This document shows, one piece after another, positions 5,824 through 27,404 of a DNA stretch of 35,884 nucleotides. The stretch spans positions 1 through 35,884 of the forward strand of contig JADLAB010000580.1 of assembly GCA_020848455.1 (NCBI GenBank). Direction: 5' to 3'. Positions within the stretch are counted from its first letter, which is position 1, and each line of letters begins with the position of its first letter. Source of the stretch: Polyangiaceae bacterium. GTDB taxonomy: Bacteria > Myxococcota_A > Polyangia > Polyangiales > Polyangiaceae. A program made the position numbers and the translations under genes. Below the pieces are notes generated by a model, which was not told the origin of the DNA, ran no database searches, and was given only the letters and a program-made list of their open reading frames with translations.

Positions 5824-6066
5824 GACGAGATCGTCATCCCGGAGGGCATCGCCGTCGGGGCGCGGCTGCTCGAAGGGGGCAGCCCCATCGACGCGGCGAC
5901 CGAGGTCGAGCTCACGCCGGCCGAGCCGTTCCTCGCCATCTACCCGACCGGCAAGCACGGCGAGATCGTCGTCTACGGGCTCGAGCCGGGGCAAACGGTC
6001 GTCCATGTCACGGTCGACGGCGAGGCGGCGTTCGACATCCCGGCCACCGTGTCGGCGCAGCCGTAG
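5824..6066 (+). pseudogene. 5'-truncated coding remnant
   Basis: The stretch 5677-6192 has no intact gene. Within it, the plus frame from 5824 to the TAG at 6064-6066 has coding-like composition: about 80 codons, nearly all ending in G or C. Its peptide is structured-looking, with alternating beta-like segments (AIYPTGKHGEIVVYGL, VVHVTVDGEAAFDI). The frame has no ATG, GTG or TTG and is closed upstream by a TAG at 5821-5823. The sequence before that loses the codon bias. I read it as the C-terminal end of a decayed gene, possibly an Ig-like or pilus-type beta domain. A very short gene with a non-standard start is the alternative. I see nothing definite in 5677-5820 or 6067-6192. Confidence 0.45.
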
Positions 6067-6192
6067 GCGCTCGGCGGGCCACCGCGGCGCGCCCGAGCAC
6101 CGGCGGATGTCACGGCACCGCCTCGTCGGGTAGCTCCCAGACCTCGAGCGCCCCCGCGGTGCGCGCCCCGCTCCCATGGTACGACGCGCGCC

Positions 6193-7035
6193 ATGGACAG
6201 GGACCTCGCAGGGCGCTTCATCGTCATCACCGGCGCCAACACGGGCATCGGCCTCGCAACGGCCGAGATCCTCGCCGCGCGCGGCGCCAAGCTGGCGCTC
6301 GCCTGTCGTTCGGAGGCGAAGACCCTGCCCGTCGTCGAGGCCCTGCGCAGGCAGGGCGGCGAGGCCGAGTTCGTCGCGCTCGACCTCGCGTCGCTCGCGA
6401 GCGTGCGCACCTGCGCCGCGGGCCTCCTCGGCACCGGGCGGCCGATCGACGTCCTGCTCAACAACGCGGGGCTCGCGGGCCAGCGTGGGCAGACCGCCGA
6501 CGGCTTCGAGCTCGCCTTCGGCACGAACCACCTCGGGCATTTCCTGCTCACGCTGCTCGTGATGCCGCTCCTGCGACAGGCGAAGGCCGCGCGCATCGTC
6601 CACGTCGCAAGCACTGCGCACTACGACGCCAAGGGCATCGACTTCGAGGCCGTGAGGAAGCCGACCGAGACCGTGACGGGCCTGCGGGAGTACGCGGTCT
6701 CGAAGCTCGCCAACGTGCTCTTCCCGCGCGAGCTCGCGCGCCGCGTCGGGCCGGAAGGCATCCACAGCTACGCGCTTCATCCCGGCGTCGTCGCCTCCGA
6801 CGGGTGGCGCCGCATCCCGTGGCCCATCCGCCCGCTGATGAAGCTCTTCATGCTCTCGAACGCGGAGGGCGCCGCCACGAGCGTCCACTGCGCCACCGCG
6901 CCCGAGGTCGCCGGCGACGACGGCCGCTACTACGACCGCTGCCGCGAGAAGCGGCCGAGCCCGCTCGCGCTCGACGACGATCTCGCGCGCAAGCTCTGGG
7001 CGCACAGCGTCGAGTGGACGGGCGTCGGGCTCTGA
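6193..7035 (+). CDS. SDR family oxidoreductase, retinol-dehydrogenase-like
   Basis: A 280-residue short-chain dehydrogenase. It has TGANTGIG for cofactor binding, CRS after the second strand (an Arg there often favours NADP), LLNNAG, and the catalytic Ser140, Tyr167 (YAVSK) and Lys171. The FGTNHLGHFLLT segment and the long interval between Ser and Tyr are typical of the RDH11-14/WWOX-like group common in bacteria. It probably oxidises or reduces a lipophilic alcohol/aldehyde; the substrate is unknown. It stands alone on the plus strand, after the 5824-6066 remnant and before a strong hairpin at 7046-7096. Confidence 0.92.
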   Translation: MDRDLAGRFIVITGANTGIGLATAEILAARGAKLALACRSEAKTLPVVEALRRQGGEAEFVALDLASLASVRTCAAGLLGTGRPIDVLLNNAGLAGQRGQTADGFELAFGTNHLGHFLLTLLVMPLLRQAKAARIVHVASTAHYDAKGIDFEAVRKPTETVTGLREYAVSKLANVLFPRELARRVGPEGIHSYALHPGVVASDGWRRIPWPIRPLMKLFMLSNAEGAATSVHCATAPEVAGDDGRYYDRCREKRPSPLALDDDLARKLWAHSVEWTGVGL

Positions 7036-12484: not shown

Positions 12485-14164
12485 ATGGCGCGCTTGCGCG
12501 GGGTGGCACACGGGCGTTCGGCCGGACACTCCTGGTGCCGGGTGCTCGTCCCGATCCTGTTCGCGAGCGGCGCGTGCGTCCTGCCCGCGGCGACGGCGGT
12601 CGATGGCGCCACCGGGGGGGCGGGCGGCTCGGGCGCGACCGGCGGCTCGGGGGCGGGCGGCTCGGGCGCGACCGGCGGCTCGGGGGCGGGCGGCTCGGGC
12701 GCGACCGGCGGCTCGGGGGCGGGCGGCGGCGTGTGTGGCTTCGGCGCGGGGGGTGAGGCCGGCCACACCGGCGAGGACCAGTGGAGCGGGCAGTACGGGC
12801 TCGCCAACTACGAGGAGGCCCTGTCGGTGGCGCTCGACGGGACCGGCAACGTGTTCGTCACGGGGGTCTTCAACACGACCACGAACCTCGGTGGCGGGCA
12901 GCTCGACTCGATCGGCAAGGGCGACGCCTTCCTCGGCAAGTGGAGCCCGGCGGGGGCGCCGCTCGCGAGCCGTCCGATCGGCTCGCTCGAGGACGAGTGG
13001 GGGTTCACCGTCACGGTCGGCCCGCTCGGCGGCGTGTACCTCGGCGGTAGCCACAGGGACGACCTCCTGCTCGGCAATGCCACGGTGCCCCATGCGTCGG
13101 CCGACGAGGACGCCTTCATCGTGAAGCTGAACGGCAGCCTCGTCGCCGACTGGGCCCTGTCCGTCGCAGGAACGGGCAGCCAGGCGACGATGGGGCTCGC
13201 GACGGACGCGGCGGAGAACGTCTACGCCTACGTCGTCTCGGACGGCGACATCGCGAGCCCCGTGGACTTGCCGGCCGGCGCGAGCGACATCGCAATCCTG
13301 AAGCTCGCGCCGGACGGCACCGTCCTCTGGGCCACGGCCTTCGGCGACGGCCAGGTTCAGAGCATGTGGGCCGGGACCGTCGTCGCGTTCGATCCCGTCG
13401 CGGCGAACGTGGTCGTCGGGGGCATGTTTCGCTCGCAAACGCAGACGTCCCTCGACTGGAATTTCCTCGGCGGCACCTGCCCGCCGCTCGCCAACGTCTC
13501 GGGCCAGCCGCTCGGCTTCGTCGCGCGGCTCGACGCCGACGGCCACTGTGTCACCTCGCGGCGCATCGGCACGCCGGGTGTCGCGGAGGTGCCGCGACTC
13601 GAGCTCGCGCTCGGACCGACCGGCGACGTCTACGTCGCCGGTCAGTTCCACGGCACGCTCGACTTCTCGGACGGCGCCGATCCATGCGCTCAGCTGGTGG
13701 CGGGACCCGCGAGCGCGGACGCCTTCGTCGCCAGGTTGGGGCCCGACGCCGGGTGGGTGCCGGGCGTGAGCTGGGCGCGCCGCATCGGTGAGCCCGGCGT
13801 GGGGGACAACGGTCAGACCTCCGCTGGCCTCCACGTCGACGATGCCGACCGCGTCACGGTCGCGTTCCTCACCTCGGGCACCGTCTCGGCGGGCGGCGAG
13901 ACCTTCTACGGCACCGGGGCCGAGGAGGACATCGTCATGGCGAAGTACGGCCCATCGGGCGAGCACCTCTGGAGCCACTTCTACGCCACGGCGGGGGACC
14001 TCCACGACACGCCGCGGGCCCTGGCCTGCCGCCAGGACGGCGTGTGCGCCCTCGTCGGCCGGCGCGGGACGGACGGCGCCGGCACGGGGTCGCTCGATTT
14101 CGGCAACACGGTGCTCCCGCCACCGAGCTGGTTCGACATGTACGTCGCACAGTTCGCGCCCTGA
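12485..14164 (+). CDS. Secreted beta-propeller (SBBP-like) lipoprotein with Gly-Ser-Thr linker
   Basis: A 559-residue protein with a leader ending FASGAC (Cys31, probable lipidation site). A linker of three identical 11-residue repeats (GGSGATGGSGA, 47-79) follows. The rest has repeats of about 45-60 residues with a motif like DAFLGKWSPAG, DAFIVKLNG, DIAILKLAPDG, GFVARLDADG, DAFVARLGPD and DIVMAKYGPSG. Each is followed by a V/A-V-D-x-x-G-N-V-Y segment, as in SBBP-type beta-propellers. It is likely displayed at the outer membrane or cell surface; ligand or partner is unknown. Start choice is the ATG at 12485. Confidence 0.85.
   Translation: MARLRGVAHGRSAGHSWCRVLVPILFASGACVLPAATAVDGATGGAGGSGATGGSGAGGSGATGGSGAGGSGATGGSGAGGGVCGFGAGGEAGHTGEDQWSGQYGLANYEEALSVALDGTGNVFVTGVFNTTTNLGGGQLDSIGKGDAFLGKWSPAGAPLASRPIGSLEDEWGFTVTVGPLGGVYLGGSHRDDLLLGNATVPHASADEDAFIVKLNGSLVADWALSVAGTGSQATMGLATDAAENVYAYVVSDGDIASPVDLPAGASDIAILKLAPDGTVLWATAFGDGQVQSMWAGTVVAFDPVAANVVVGGMFRSQTQTSLDWNFLGGTCPPLANVSGQPLGFVARLDADGHCVTSRRIGTPGVAEVPRLELALGPTGDVYVAGQFHGTLDFSDGADPCAQLVAGPASADAFVARLGPDAGWVPGVSWARRIGEPGVGDNGQTSAGLHVDDADRVTVAFLTSGTVSAGGETFYGTGAEEDIVMAKYGPSGEHLWSHFYATAGDLHDTPRALACRQDGVCALVGRRGTDGAGTGSLDFGNTVLPPPSWFDMYVAQFAP
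12623..12721 (+). repeat. Three tandem 33-bp repeats
   Basis: Three copies of a 33-bp unit, identical at the bases I compared, encode GGSGATGGSGA three times in the linker of the beta-propeller lipoprotein. The unit is a whole number of codons, so copy-number changes would shorten or lengthen the linker without a frameshift. Confidence 0.9.
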
Positions 14165-16786: not shown

Positions 16787-17731
16787 GTGCGCTGCCCGGC
16801 GTGCGGCGCCGACCACCGCCCCGGCGCCCGCTTTTGCCGGCGCTGCGGTGCGCCCTTCGACCCCGGCGACGCGCGGCCGGTGAGTGCGGGGGCGAGTGCG
16901 GGCGCGGGTGCGGGGGCGGGCGCGGGTGCGGGGGCGAGCGCGGGTGCGGGCGCGAGTGCGGGCGCGGGCGCGGGTGCGGGGGCGGGCGCGAGTGCGGGTG
17001 CGGGGGCGAGCGCGGGGGCGAGTGCGGGTGTGGGGGCGGGCGCGGGGGTGGGGGCGGGCGGGCCGGAGTCCGTCGCTTCGCCGAGCCGCCGGGCGCTCGC
17101 GGCTTGGCGCACGCTGACGCCGCTCTTCTGGCTCATGGTGCTCCTGCTCGGGAGCTCGGGGTTCGTCGTGTTCGCCGGTCGGGCCCACCCCGAGCACACC
17201 GCGAGCTACGAGCTCGCCGCGGCCCTCTTCGACGCCGCGGTCATCGCGGCCTTCGCGCTCGGCGAACGGCGCGCGCTCGCTCCGCTGCTCGGCAGGCTCG
17301 CCGCGCCCGGGCGGAGCGCGCTCTACGTGCTCGCGGCCGTCGGCTGCATCTTCGCCTTCATGGAGCTCTACTTCCTCGCGCTCGGCGCCTTCGGCGTCGA
17401 GGAGCTCCGCTTCCTCGAGCACTACGGCGCGGCGGGCTGGCCGACGTGGGCCGTCTTCGCCTTCGTGAGCGGCCTGCCGGCCGTGGTCGAGGAGCTCGCG
17501 TTCCGGGGCTACGTGTGGACACGCCTCGAGCGCGTGGTCGGGCCGCGCGACGCCCTCGTCATCCAGGCGGCGATGTTCTCGGTGCTGCACCTCATGCAGC
17601 TCGTGTTCCTGAGCCACTTCGCCATCGGTCTCGTGCTCGGGCTCCTGCGCCTGCGGACGAAGAGCCTCTACCCGGGCATGGCGGCGCACGCCGCGTGGAA
17701 CGCGATCGTGGTGCTCGAGGAGCTGCTGTGA
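16787..17731 (+). CDS. CPBP-family intramembrane glutamic protease with N-terminal zinc ribbon
   Basis: The 314-residue product begins with a zinc ribbon (CPACG...CRRCG, residues 3-20). A roughly 60-residue Ala/Gly/Ser/Val low-complexity linker (about 33-92) follows, then a multi-helix membrane domain. CPBP (Abi/Rce1-like) motifs are present: Glu235-Glu236-x3-Arg240 in EELAFRGY, FSVLHLM with His268, and HAAWN with His301 and Asn305. These form the catalytic and metal/water-binding site of the CAAX-protease-like family. The GTG start is 1 nt after the preceding stop. The substrate is unknown; other CPBP proteins act in prenyl-protein processing or bacteriocin immunity. Confidence 0.93.
   Translation: MRCPACGADHRPGARFCRRCGAPFDPGDARPVSAGASAGAGAGAGAGAGASAGAGASAGAGAGAGAGASAGAGASAGASAGVGAGAGVGAGGPESVASPSRRALAAWRTLTPLFWLMVLLLGSSGFVVFAGRAHPEHTASYELAAALFDAAVIAAFALGERRALAPLLGRLAAPGRSALYVLAAVGCIFAFMELYFLALGAFGVEELRFLEHYGAAGWPTWAVFAFVSGLPAVVEELAFRGYVWTRLERVVGPRDALVIQAAMFSVLHLMQLVFLSHFAIGLVLGLLRLRTKSLYPGMAAHAAWNAIVVLEELL
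16880..17062 (+). repeat. Degenerate GCGGGN hexanucleotide tract encoding an Ala/Gly/Ser linker
   Basis: About 180 bp of imperfect GCGGG(C/T/G)-type hexamers sit inside the CPBP protease gene between zinc ribbon and membrane domain. The reading frame holds Ala-Gly, Ala-Ser and Val-Gly dipeptides. Its composition makes it prone to slippage and to assembly error. Confidence 0.85.
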
Positions 17732-23541: not shown

Positions 23542-23544
23542 ATG

Positions 23545-24867
23545 ATGAGAGCTCGCTGGATCCTCGCACTCGGTGCCCTCGGCGCCGCGGGGTGCTCGAA
23601 GGCCGCGGACGACGCGGCGCCGGGCCCGACCGCCGTGACCACGCCCGAGCCGGCCCCCGCGGCCCCGAGCGCGACCGAAGCCGCGACCGCGACCGCGACC
23701 GCGACCGCGGCGCCGGACGCCTCGGCCTCGGCGAGCGCGGTCGCCTCGGCGGACGCCTCCGCGCGCGAGCTCGCGCGTCAGGCGGCGCTCAGGGACGCGC
23801 AGGAGTTCGGGTTGATCGGCCTGCTCAACGCCGGCAAGGGAGGCGATCCCGACGCGCCGACGGCACCCTGGGGTCGCGACAGCAGCATCGGCACCGACCC
23901 GCTCGAGGCCCGCGGCAACATGTGGGGCGACCAGATCGGCGAGTCCTTCGGCTCGGGAGGGCTCGGCCTCGCGGGCGTCGGCGAGGGGGGCGGCGGGCGC
24001 GGCGAGGGCATCGGCCTCGGAAGCGTCGGCGTCATCGGGCACGGCGCCGGCACGGGACAGGGCTACGGCTACGGCAGCGGCGCCGGGCGCGGCGGCACGG
24101 GCTCCCGCGCGACTCCGCCCCGGGTCCGGATGGGCACGCCGAGCGTGTCCGGGCGCCTGCCGCCGGAGGTCGTCCAGCGCATCCTGCGCCAGCACTTCGG
24201 GCGCCTGCGCCTCTGCTACGAGCAGGGCCTCGGGCGGGACCCGAAGCTCGAGGGGCGGGTCGTCGTCGGCTTCACCATCCAGCGCTCGGGCGAGGCGTCG
24301 GACCTCGCCACCGGGGGCGACCTGCCGGACGCGGGCGTGAAGAGCTGCGTCGAGCGCGCCCTCACCGGGCTCCACTTCCCGGCGCCCGAGGCCGGCGTGG
24401 TCAAGGTGAGCTGTCCCATCGCGTTCAGCCCGGGCGACGCGGGGCCCGCCGCCACGAGCCCCGCGCCTGCCCTGAGCACGGCCACCCCCGGGGGCACCGC
24501 GAGCGCAGCTGCACCTGCGGCGCCGAGCCCGGGCAGTCCGACGAGCGCGCGCATCGCCGGCAAGCCCGCCGCGTCCGTCACGGCGCGCGACCTCGCCGAG
24601 GCGTTTCGCGCGGCGGGCTGGAGCGACGTGACGACGACGACGCGCGGCCCGGTGTCGGTCCTCGAGCTGCGCCGCGGCGACAAGACGATCACGCTCTACT
24701 TCGTGCCCGCGTTCCGGCCGGGCGCGCTCGACGCCTTGACCGAGGCGGAGCGCGCGCGCCTCGCGAGCGAGGGCGCCGTCTGGCAGGAGGCGGGGATCTA
24801 CCTCGGCGTCGTGGCCGGGAGCCCGGCCGAGGCTCGGGCGCTGCTGCGGGCGCTCATGGCGAGCTGA
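23545..24867 (+). CDS. AgmX/PglI C-terminal-domain lipoprotein
   Basis: About 440 residues. The leader ends in a lipobox (GAAGC, Cys17 counting from 23545), followed by an Ala/Thr/Ser/Pro linker with a short (GCGACC)4 repeat at 23683-23706 and a Gly-rich segment (about 125-190). Residues about 205-296 form the AgmX/PglI C-terminal domain: LPPEVVQRILRQHFGRLRLCYEQGL, then GRVVVGFTIQRSGE, SCVERALTGLHFP and VSCPIAF. This domain resembles TonB C-termini and in Myxococcus occurs in gliding-motility proteins. A second, unrecognised domain (about 335-440) follows an Ala/Pro linker. It is probably an envelope protein; a motility role is only inferred. Confidence 0.9.
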   Translation: MRARWILALGALGAAGCSKAADDAAPGPTAVTTPEPAPAAPSATEAATATATATAAPDASASASAVASADASARELARQAALRDAQEFGLIGLLNAGKGGDPDAPTAPWGRDSSIGTDPLEARGNMWGDQIGESFGSGGLGLAGVGEGGGGRGEGIGLGSVGVIGHGAGTGQGYGYGSGAGRGGTGSRATPPRVRMGTPSVSGRLPPEVVQRILRQHFGRLRLCYEQGLGRDPKLEGRVVVGFTIQRSGEASDLATGGDLPDAGVKSCVERALTGLHFPAPEAGVVKVSCPIAFSPGDAGPAATSPAPALSTATPGGTASAAAPAAPSPGSPTSARIAGKPAASVTARDLAEAFRAAGWSDVTTTTRGPVSVLELRRGDKTITLYFVPAFRPGALDALTEAERARLASEGAVWQEAGIYLGVVAGSPAEARALLRALMAS

Positions 24868-24874
24868 TCGGTCC

Positions 24875-24899
24875 CGCGAGCGGCTCCGCGTAGAACCGC
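24875..24899. repeat. 25-bp direct repeat, left copy
   Basis: This segment is identical to 26304-26328. Read on the minus strand it encodes RFYAEPLA, the same peptide as near the C-terminus of the lipoprotein gene at 26271-27404. Eight further bases (CCCCACGC) are shared next to it after a 4-nt length difference. The pair brackets the DUF4143 ATPase gene and looks like an insertion or duplication scar. The wider region 24868-25092 holds no gene. Confidence 0.8.
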
Positions 24900-25026
24900 T
24901 CCCCACGCGAGGTCGCTCGCGGCTCGCTCGCCGCGCGGGGGGCGATTCGCGGTCACGATCGGTGCGACCACCAAGCGACCCTGCAGGTGGGGTCCGTCGC
25001 GGCGCTGCGGCGGCTCACCCGACCGC

Positions 25027-25076
25027 TGAGCGAAGTCTCGTGAAGCCAACTTTACTCATGAGCGAAGTAGTATAAA
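25027..25076 (+). promoter_or_regulatory. Upstream region of the DUF4143 ATPase gene with paired 10-mers
   Basis: TGAGCGAAGT occurs twice, at 25027-25036 and 25059-25068, 32 bp apart (about three helical turns). It lies just before an AT-rich TATAAA at 25071-25076 and 16 bp before the ATG at 25093. An imperfect inverted repeat (ACTTTACT with AGTATAAACT) also spans 25049-25078. This is the most AT-rich spot in the window and would suit a promoter with an operator. No good -35 box at 16-18 bp spacing is seen. Confidence 0.45.
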
Positions 25077-25092
25077 CTGTAATTCACTAAGA

Positions 25093-26226
25093 ATGCCCGA
25101 AGCCGCGAAGCGCTACCTGCACGACCCCATCGAGCGCGACCTCGAGGAGAAGATGGTGTTCATCAGCGGTCCGCGGCAGGTGGGTAAGACGACGCTCGCG
25201 CTCCGGCTCGCGGGGGCTCGCGACGCGCGCCACCCGGCCTACTTGAGCTGGGACGACGTCCGTGCGCGGCCGCGCATTCGGCAGGGCGAGCTGCCCGCGG
25301 CCGAGCCGCGCATCGTGCTCGACGAGATCCACAAGTACGCCCGCTGGCGCGGTCTCGTGAAGGGGCTCTTCGACACACGGGAGCCCGGGCAGTCGTTCAT
25401 CGTCACCGGCTCTGCGCGCCTCGACGTCTACCGGCGCGGCGGCGATTCGTTGCAGGGCCGCTACCACGCCTATCGCCTGCATCCCTTCTCGCTCCCCGAG
25501 CTCGGCGGGCACGCCGACTTGCTCGACGCGCTGCTGAAGTTCGGCGGTTTTCCCGAGCCGCTCTTCCGCGGTCAGACGACCCACTGGCGGCGCTGGCAGC
25601 GGGAGCGCATCGACCGCGTCGTGCGCGACGACGTCCGCGATCTCGAACGGGTGCGCGAGCTCTCGCTCATCGAGCTGCTCGTGGACGCTTTGCCTTCACG
25701 GGTCGGCTCGCCGCTTTCGGTCAAGAACCTGCGGGAGGATCTCGAGGTTGCGCACGCCACGGCGGAGCGCTGGCTCGGCATTCTCGAGAACCTCTACGTG
25801 TGCTTCCGCATCGCCCCGCTCGGCGCGCCCCGCATCCGGGCCGTGAAGAAGGAGCGGAAGCTCTACCTCTGGGACTGGTCCGCCGTCCCCGATGCGGGGC
25901 CGCGCTTCGAGAACCTCGTGGCCTGCCACCTGCTCAAGCTCTGCCACTTCCTCGAGGACACCGAGGGTCACCGCATGGAGCTGCGCTACCTGCGGGACAC
26001 CGACGGCCGTGAGGTCGACTTCGTCATCTTGAAGGCCGGCAAGCCAGAGCTCGCCGTGGAGGCGAAGAGCGCCGAGCGCGGTCCGAGCCCGGCGCTGCGC
26101 TACTTCAAGGAGCGCACGGGGATCCGGCGCTTCTACCAGGTCCACCTCGGTGCGACCGACGCCGTCGTAGACGGCGTGCGCGTGCTGCCCTTCGCGGCGT
26201 TGTGCCGCGAGCTCGGCATCCCTTGA
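25093..26226 (+). CDS. AAA ATPase of the AAA_14/DUF4143 family
   Basis: A 377-residue protein. The N-terminal AAA domain has Walker A GPRQVGKTT (Lys32) and Walker B IVLDE (Asp77-Glu78), and a sensor-like IVTGSARLD. A winged-helix-like linker (about 190-240, SVKNLREDLEVAHATAERWLGILE) follows. The C-terminal DUF4143 region looks like a PD-(D/E)xK nuclease fold: EVDF with Asp309, then AVEAK with Glu323 and Lys325. Family members are scattered by horizontal transfer and have no settled function. Its codons have slightly more A/T third positions than neighbours. It is alone in a cassette flanked by 25-bp direct repeats and has an AT-rich upstream region, which suggests acquisition as a unit. Confidence 0.93.
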   Translation: MPEAAKRYLHDPIERDLEEKMVFISGPRQVGKTTLALRLAGARDARHPAYLSWDDVRARPRIRQGELPAAEPRIVLDEIHKYARWRGLVKGLFDTREPGQSFIVTGSARLDVYRRGGDSLQGRYHAYRLHPFSLPELGGHADLLDALLKFGGFPEPLFRGQTTHWRRWQRERIDRVVRDDVRDLERVRELSLIELLVDALPSRVGSPLSVKNLREDLEVAHATAERWLGILENLYVCFRIAPLGAPRIRAVKKERKLYLWDWSAVPDAGPRFENLVACHLLKLCHFLEDTEGHRMELRYLRDTDGREVDFVILKAGKPELAVEAKSAERGPSPALRYFKERTGIRRFYQVHLGATDAVVDGVRVLPFAALCRELGIP

Positions 26227-26270
26227 AAGGGGGAGGTGTCGGGAAGGGGCACGACGGGAGCGGCACCTCG

Positions 26271-27404
26271 TCAGGGGCCCTCGGGGCGCGCCGCCGAGGG
26301 CGGCGCGAGCGGCTCCGCGTAGAACCGCGCCATGCCCCACGCCGTCCGCGTGAGCACGGAGCGGCCCACGCCGACCGGGCCCTCGTCGACCGCCGCGAGG
26401 TCGCGCAGCGCGAGCCCTACTCGCGGCCCGTCCGCGGTCGAGCGCAGCACCTGCCCCGCCGCGAGCCCGACCGTGCTCGGGACCTCCCTGCCCTCGCCGA
26501 GGCCCCCGTGCCCGCAGCCGTAGCCCGCCCCACCCTCGAGCGCCCGGAGCTGGAAGCTCGCGACGTAGCCGACGACCCGCCGCCATCCGTGGCACGGGAC
26601 CACGTAGGCGACCTTCGTGAACGAGCGGTCGGGCTCGCCGAGCGCCTCGACCCACGCAGTGTCGTCCACGCGCACGAGCGCGCCCGTGCCGCGCCCGCGG
26701 AAGAGGGTCGCGCCCGCCGCGAGCTCGTGGGTCATGCCCACGCCGAACTCCTTGGGCTCGACGACCGGGTCGAGCGCCGCGCTCTCGACCCACCCCTCGT
26801 CGTCGTCGAGGCGCACGCGCGCGAAGCCGTTGCGCTCCTCGAGGAGCTCGAGGCGCGCCCCGGGGGCGAGCCAGACGCCGGGCGCGTCGGGCTCGGGCGG
26901 GGGCGCGACCGGCTGCGCCGTGAGCAGCACCGGTCGGCGCGGCCACCGCCCGAGATCCGCGCGCTCGACCCAGGCGAGCAGGCCGAGCCCGGAGCGGCGC
27001 AGGACGAGCCGCACCTCGGCGCCGCCGTCCGCCACGACGACCAGCGGCTCCGGGAGGTCCGCCGGCTTGCCGCCGCCGTCGGCGACGGGCTCGCCGCCCG
27101 CCACGAGCCGTAGCTTGCCGAAGCGCGCGAGTCGCGCGCGCTGACGGAACGGTGCCTGCGCCTTCGTGTCGCGGAGCGCGGCGAAGGCCGGATCGTCGGG
27201 CTCGGGCACCGGCACGGGCGCGACCACCGTCGGGACCTCCGGCGGCGCGCTCGGGCTCGGGTCCGCGAGCGGCACGACGATCGGCGCCGCGGAGACGGAC
27301 GGCACGGGGGCCGGCGCGACGGGCTCGGACGCGGGTGGACACGCGACGAGCGCGAGCGCGAGCGCGAGCGCGGCGAGAGCGGGCGTGCGAACGGCACGGG
27401 ACAT
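26271..27404 (-). CDS. Envelope lipoprotein with SH3-like segments
   Basis: A 377-residue protein whose leader (LALALALALVAC, lipobox LVAC, Cys22) is followed by a Pro/Val/Ala linker to about residue 70. Three or four repeats resembling bacterial SH3 folds follow, for example residues about 180-215 (LAPGARLELLEERNGFARVRLDDDEGWVES) and TLFRGRGTGALVRVDDTAWVEA. Such domains bind peptidoglycan or proteins in the periplasm. Near the C-terminus the codons for RFYAEPLA (26304-26328) are repeated 1.4 kb away beyond the DUF4143 gene, so the present 3' end may have been reshaped by that insertion. It starts 36 bp after the stop of the 992-residue lipoprotein gene and is probably co-transcribed with it. 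Confidence 0.82.
   Translation of the reverse strand: MSRAVRTPALAALALALALVACPPASEPVAPAPVPSVSAAPIVVPLADPSPSAPPEVPTVVAPVPVPEPDDPAFAALRDTKAQAPFRQRARLARFGKLRLVAGGEPVADGGGKPADLPEPLVVVADGGAEVRLVLRRSGLGLLAWVERADLGRWPRRPVLLTAQPVAPPPEPDAPGVWLAPGARLELLEERNGFARVRLDDDEGWVESAALDPVVEPKEFGVGMTHELAAGATLFRGRGTGALVRVDDTAWVEALGEPDRSFTKVAYVVPCHGWRRVVGYVASFQLRALEGGAGYGCGHGGLGEGREVPSTVGLAAGQVLRSTADGPRVGLALRDLAAVDEGPVGVGRSVLTRTAWGMARFYAEPLAPPSAARPEGP
26304..26328. repeat. 25-bp direct repeat, right copy
   Basis: Identical to 24875-24899. This copy lies inside the 3' end of the lipoprotein gene on the minus strand, encoding RFYAEPLA. The start-to-start distance between copies is 1429 bp and the interval holds only the DUF4143 ATPase gene and its upstream region. 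Confidence 0.8.
27348..27371. repeat. (GAGCGC)4 repeat in a signal-peptide coding region
   Basis: Four perfect hexamers encode the alternating Ala-Leu core of the signal peptide of the lipoprotein gene at 26271-27404. A change of one unit would add or remove two residues from the hydrophobic core in frame. Confidence 0.8.

What the first reader, a model, noticed from the sequence alone, without database searches (positions are those of the whole stretch)
24875..26328. DUF4143 ATPase cassette bracketed by a 25-bp direct repeat
Identical 25-bp copies at 24875-24899 and 26304-26328 flank only the ATPase gene and its upstream region. The right copy is part of the lipoprotein gene (RFYAEPLA). The left copy, read on the same strand, encodes the same peptide and continues to its own stop (GPISSP then TGA at about 24858), overlapping the end of the AgmX-domain gene. 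Homology continues as GCGTGGGG with a 4-5 nt deletion. The layout suggests that the ATPase unit entered at the 3' end of the lipoprotein gene and duplicated the target, so the left copy may be the original gene end.
Basis: partly seen in the sequence, partly recalled or inferred. Interest (0 to 1): 0.6.

Follow-up and report, generated by a model that had tools for sequence, protein, structure and literature searches.

The report
Mobile ATPase gene with flanking repeats
A lone candidate virus-defence gene that spreads between very distant bacteria with its own control switch sits here between two copies of a 25-letter sequence, the kind of long, irregular target duplication so far described for restriction-modification genes.

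Summary
The 25-bp direct repeat is real, unique in the genome and above chance. It brackets an AAA_14+DUF4143 ATPase gene (PADLOC candidate PDC-S01). The one same-genus genome (G001) has the ATPase in the same place, a diverged left copy and no lipoprotein gene, so no empty site is known here and the event is old. Wider evidence still shows a mobile single gene: between the two genomes silent divergence drops from about 18% to 5% over just operator plus ORF; for three other G001 copies the sister genome holds exact empty sites (one insert is only 1191 bp); and direct repeats flank 11 of 78 homologues against 1 of 110 solitary control genes, several duplicating a neighbour gene's 3' end. The clean inserts show no duplication, so target changes are variable, as proposed for restriction-modification genes. 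Also found: a palindrome near ACTTTACTCATGAGTAAAGT covers the promoter of this subfamily across phyla and occurs almost nowhere else. Best explanation: a probably self-regulated NTPase-nuclease gene spreading by illegitimate or template-switch insertion with variable target duplication, without transposase or terminal repeats. Mechanism and function are inferred.

The parts
24875..24899 (.). left copy of the 25-bp direct repeat, just after the AgmX-domain gene; minus strand reads RFYAEPLAGPISSP-stop
   Evidence: a diverged counterpart is present in G001
26304..26328 (.). right copy of the repeat, in the 3' end of the lipoprotein gene
   Evidence: absent with the whole gene in G001
25049..25068 (+). 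operator-like palindrome ACTTTACTCATGAGCGAAGT, with a TATAAA at 25071-25076
   Evidence: same motif upstream of nearly all homologues; with 2 mismatches allowed only one other place in the genome, before a truncated second copy
25093..26226 (+). AAA_14 + winged helix + DUF4143 ATPase, 377 aa, PADLOC PDC-S01
   Evidence: Pfam, PADLOC, alignment, structure model
25030..26243 (+). low-divergence core (operator plus ORF), the likely mobile unit; borders approximate
   Evidence: 2.3% against 9-12% divergence to G001; fourfold sites 5.1% against 17-23%
26271..27404 (-). lipoprotein gene carrying the right copy; missing in G001
23542..24867 (+). AgmX/PglI C-terminal domain gene whose end the left copy's reading frame overlaps
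   Evidence: NCBIfam; conserved in G001

Best explanation
The feature is the footprint of a mobile single gene. The unit is a promoter with an overlapping palindromic operator plus one ORF for a STAND-like AAA ATPase with a winged helix and a PD-(D/E)XK-like domain (candidate defence gene PDC-S01). I found no transposase and no terminal repeats. SHOWN: the gene occurs across phyla with its own operator motif; sister genomes differ by presence of little more than the gene; homologues of this ATPase are flanked by direct repeats far more often than controls; the operator-plus-ORF segment has diverged less than its flanks. INFERRED: the gene enters by illegitimate joining at staggered breaks or by replication template switching, which can duplicate the target (here 25 bp at a gene end), delete a few bases, or do neither. 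At this locus it entered between the AgmX-domain gene and the lipoprotein gene before the two sequenced species separated; G001 later lost the lipoprotein gene with the right repeat; the cassette itself was exchanged later, probably by recombination within it. Autoregulation through the palindrome by the protein's own winged helix is inferred.
For: Repeat real and genome-unique. Three exact occupied/empty pairs for other ATPase copies: 1191 bp (0 bp change), 1456 bp (17 bp replaced), 1962 bp (14 bp replaced). Direct repeats at homologues: 11 of 78 loci against 18 of 2347 same-contig frames and 1 of 110 solitary genes; 8 of 77 after removing this locus and two with dispersed repeats (p 7e-7; 0.004). 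Duplicated gene 3' ends in L138, L097, L100. Divergence dip over operator+ORF. Operator conserved across phyla. No conserved sequence after the stop codon. Homologues at 55-75% identity in many phyla.
Against: No empty site is known for this locus. The three clean insertions, all of more distant ATPase copies, show no target duplication; direction (insertion, not exact deletion) is inferred. The low-divergence core does not reach the repeats: 130 nt on the left diverge at the normal rate. The 25-mer is identical in G000 while the orthologous left copy in G001 differs at several sites, which also fits local gene conversion. About 85-90% of homologous loci have no detectable repeat. Most sequences are MAGs.
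Confidence: 0.55

Rival explanations
1. The repeat is unrelated to the entry of the ATPase: a short local duplication or gene conversion copied the lipoprotein gene's end next to the AgmX-domain gene in the G000 lineage, around an ATPase already there.
For: The 25-mer is perfect in G000 while the orthologous left copy in G001 differs; the segment 24868-24912 is unusually divergent between the genomes (27%); the low-divergence core stops short of the repeats.
Against: G001's left copy still shares 15 consecutive bases with the right copy, and flanking repeats are enriched around homologues in other phyla.
Confidence: 0.25
2. The repeats are functional or dispersed sequence (REP-like elements, terminators) unrelated to insertion.
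For: In L093, L110 and L152 the repeat has further copies in the locus, and the L100 repeat contains a terminator-like hairpin.
Against: The window 25-mer has only two copies in the genome; most other cases have exactly two copies in their contigs; solitary control genes show such repeats in 1 of 110 cases.
Confidence: 0.08
3. Site-specific integration by a tyrosine or serine recombinase at the 3' end of a gene, the 25-mers being attachment sites.
For: Copies at a gene's 3' end, one orphan copy, as in integrative elements.
Against: No integrase within the unit: the 1191-bp insert at G001:C299 holds only the ATPase ORF, and repeat sequences, lengths and distances differ from locus to locus.
Confidence: 0.04

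Closest known systems
Insertion with long and variable target duplication of restriction-modification genes (Nobusato et al. 2000, as cited in PMC1643837, PMC4978471, PMC3031569)
   Same: Gene-sized unit without its own transposase, flanked by long direct repeats of variable length; candidate defence gene; presence/absence between related genomes.
   Different: Here one ATPase-nuclease-like gene with its own operator; the repeats are mostly shorter and older; three clean inserts have none; no empty site for this locus.
PDC-S01, single-gene phage defence candidate (PADLOC-DB)
   Same: The window protein matches PDC-S01 models over its length (E 4e-49); single gene; wide, patchy distribution.
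   Different: No defence test exists for it; operator and mobility were not mentioned in the passages read.
Archaeal STAND-like ATPases PABY2304 (2qen) and SSO1545 (2fna)
   Same: Same AAA plus winged-helix arrangement over residues 1-267 (Z 14.6, rmsd 3.2, 236 aligned; Z 13.8, rmsd 3.5, 240 aligned).
   Different: Here a C-terminal domain with invariant E-x-D...E-x-K follows; the fold search barely tested that part.

Membership tests
AAA_14/DUF4143 ATPase (PDC-S01) | AAA_14 and DUF4143 domains above the Pfam cut-offs; PDC-S01 profile match | tested here: met
   84.1 and 85.7 bits against cut-offs 27 and 28.1; PDLC04790 E 4e-49 over 3-370
AAA_14/DUF4143 ATPase (PDC-S01) | Walker A/B and nuclease motif intact | tested here: met
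   GPRQVGKTT, D77-E78, E307-x-D309, E323-x-K325 invariant or nearly so in 40 sequences
AAA_14/DUF4143 ATPase (PDC-S01) | Anti-phage activity | not testable with these tools
   unvalidated candidate according to PMC12988326
Insertion with long target duplication | Direct repeats flanking the gene, two copies only | tested here: met
Insertion with long target duplication | Empty allele with a single copy of the repeat | tested here: inconclusive
   no ATPase-free allele of this locus found
Insertion with long target duplication | Presence/absence of the unit between related genomes | tested here: met
   met for three other, more distant ATPase copies, without duplication; not for this locus
Classical transposon or IS | Transposase and terminal inverted repeats | tested here: not met
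   only the ATPase ORF in the unit; no conserved sequence after the stop codon
Integrative element with attachment sites | Integrase gene in the unit and a common attachment sequence | tested here: not met
   the 1191-bp insert holds only the ATPase ORF; repeats differ between loci

The most novel reading that the evidence does not exclude
The ATPase-nuclease moves its own gene: its winged helix recognises the operator palindrome, which doubles as the left border of the unit, and its nuclease domain opens staggered breaks, giving a one-gene mobile element with variable target duplication and no transposase.
Probability: 0.1. Interest if true: 0.88.

Novelty: new variant of a known kind. Interest (0 to 1): 0.6.

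Why it matters
PDC-S01 is reported as the fourth most common defence system or candidate across prokaryotes (PMC12988326), yet its function and its way of spreading are unknown. These data suggest that it travels as a near-minimal gene with its own operator, give occupied/empty pairs that fix the unit's borders, and would extend the long-target-duplication mode of gene mobility beyond restriction-modification systems. An operator conserved across phyla gives a direct biochemical handle on the protein.

Tried and rejected
Empty site for this locus: 59 and 108 genomes searched with the lipoprotein, ATPase and 992-aa proteins; only G001 is syntenic, G128 is not. Empty sites for L100 and L138: relatives lack the ATPase, but L100's neighbours differ too and L138's gene has paralogues, so no clean junction. 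Phages and viral contigs: no relatives; plasmids hold only distant ones, best about 38%. PDB by sequence: nothing by phmmer, only short RecA P-loop matches by profile. Longer homology around the repeat by gapped alignment: not above the GC-rich background. Strings printed are shifted by a script error (lengths are right); searches are the correct version. Purifying selection alone as the cause of the ATPase's high identity: not favoured, because fourfold sites show it too. The 'prev' row is an alignment artefact and was not used. Control frames overlap and are not independent; one search is the stricter but smaller control. Direct repeats around the 25 mostly more distant copies in G000 and G001: no convincing case.

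Full report
OBSERVATION. The exact 25-mer CGCGAGCGGCTCCGCGTAGAACCGC is present at 24875-24899 and 26304-26328 and nowhere else in the 9.2-Mb genome, even with three mismatches allowed. It is the longest non-tandem exact repeat of the window; simulated windows do not exceed 23 nt. The continuation CCCCACGC is there, but gapped extension does not rise above the GC-rich background.

THE CLOSE RELATIVE. One same-genus genome is held (G001; its contig appears as JACRDA010000346.1, a Myxococcales groundwater MAG). It has the AgmX-domain gene, the ATPase (98% amino-acid identity) and the 992-aa gene in the same order, but the lipoprotein gene is missing: the sequences matching window 26258 and 27440 are 63 nt apart there. 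What differs between the two genomes is therefore the lipoprotein gene, not the ATPase. The G001 junction keeps a 36-nt stretch like the lipoprotein gene's 5' end (7 of 1000 shuffles as good), which makes loss in G001 more likely than gain in G000. G001 also has a left copy, diverged (CGAGCGGCTCCGCGTGGCGCCGA...). The pair of repeats is older than the species split, or was homogenised later in G000.

THE UNIT. Along the alignment of the two genomes, divergence is about 9-12% upstream and 2.3% within the ATPase ORF. The low stretch starts near 25030, just before the operator, and ends shortly after the stop codon. At fourfold sites it is 5.1% against 17-23% in three neighbouring genes (p 2e-7). 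The operator-plus-ORF segment thus appears to have a younger common ancestor than its surroundings. I infer cassette-limited exchange; stronger constraint on silent sites is a less likely alternative.

MOBILITY. Related ATPases are numerous in both genomes (11 matched stretches in G000, 18 in G001), but only three copies are shared in place. A search of G000 with the flanks of the other G001 copies found three exact empty sites. At G001:C299 the insert is 1191 bp: about 34 nt of promoter, the ORF, and one or two bases after the stop, joined without loss or gain. At G001:C228, 1456 bp stand in place of 17 bp. At G001:C32, 1962 bp, which also hold a Uma2-family gene, stand in place of 14 bp. Three more G001 copies have shrunken remnants in G000. 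That these are insertions rather than exact deletions is inferred from the gene-precise borders. The C299 protein is a full AAA_14+DUF4143 protein and also matches PDC-S01.

DIRECT REPEATS AROUND HOMOLOGUES. In loci of homologues from many phyla I compared sequence upstream of the operator with sequence downstream of the stop. Ungapped matches of score 15 or more occur in 11 of 78 loci, in 18 of 2347 frames of equal geometry elsewhere in the same contigs (these frames overlap), and in 1 of 110 solitary genes. Leaving out this locus, for which the question was raised, and two loci with dispersed repeats gives 8 of 77 (p 7e-7, 0.004). Examples: L156 about 105 nt, L100 74 nt, L120 37 nt, L097 27-30 nt, L138 23 nt, L144 23 nt. 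In L138 and L097 the duplicated piece is the upstream gene's 3' end; in L100 it is a gene end with a terminator-like hairpin. This is the pattern seen in the window. Lengths and positions vary, and no conserved sequence follows the stop codon, so this is not an ordinary transposon.

THE OPERATOR. Upstream of most homologues lies a palindrome close to ACTTTACTCATGAGTAAAGT, often followed by a -10-like sequence, with further half-sites about 32 bp before and 25 bp after its centre. Its outer arms covary (arm position 11: 48 of 76 complementary against 20 expected, all four pair types). With one mismatch allowed it occurs at 16 places in 14 of 20 other genomes; 15 lie just upstream of a close homologue and one near a distant relative. 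In G000 it occurs, with two mismatches allowed, only here and in front of a second copy that runs off the end of contig C40. In many loci the start codon lies 27-31 nt from the centre, about where transcription would start, which suggests leaderless messages (inference). Several more distant copies in G000 and G001 have other dyads in the same position (not tested statistically).

THE PROTEIN. AlphaFold gives a confident model (mean pLDDT 90.8, pTM 0.92): AAA ATPase, winged-helix-like region (about 188-260), and a C-terminal alpha/beta domain with invariant E307-x-D309 and E323-x-K325, as in PD-(D/E)XK nucleases (general knowledge; not tested by fold). The best structural neighbours of residues 1-267 are the archaeal ATPases 2qen and 2fna (Z 14.6 and 13.8), then STAND proteins such as plant NLRs, CED-4 and Avs5. 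PADLOC lists the family as PDC-S01, reported as very common and unvalidated (PMC12988326; PMC13356809).

INTERPRETATION. The most economical account joins three facts: near-minimal inserts with 0, 14 and 17 bp of target replaced, an excess of long direct repeats around homologues, and absence of any transposase or conserved ends. Insertion by illegitimate joining at staggered breaks, or by replication template switching, can give duplications, deletions or neither. The same mode, insertion with long and variable target duplication, was proposed for restriction-modification genes by Nobusato and colleagues (cited in PMC1643837, PMC4978471, PMC3031569).

Noticed in passing
L226 (G001:C182), about 815-940 in gene orientation; G000 hits (query 660-783): A dispersed repeat of roughly 120 bp with more than 20 places at 84-95% identity in G000; looks like a repeat family of this genus.
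   Followed up: no
L227 (G001:C32), 6046-6627 minus strand: A Uma2-family putative restriction endonuclease gene (Pfam E 9e-26) lies in the same 1962-bp insert as an ATPase copy.
   Followed up: partly
G000:C40:1-313 (L165): Second, truncated copy of this ATPase with its palindrome, running off the contig end.
   Followed up: partly
upstream of ATPase copies L226, L234, L241, L244, L246: Other ATPase subfamilies also show AT-rich dyads just before the start codon, with other sequences; each subfamily may have its own operator.
   Followed up: partly
26271-27404: The lipoprotein gene (weak SH3-like match) has only distant relatives in a few family members and is missing in the sister species.
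   Followed up: partly
12616-12761 and 16886-17062: GC-rich tandem repeats in the window; the second resembles a stretch of G001:C223 near another ATPase copy.
   Followed up: no
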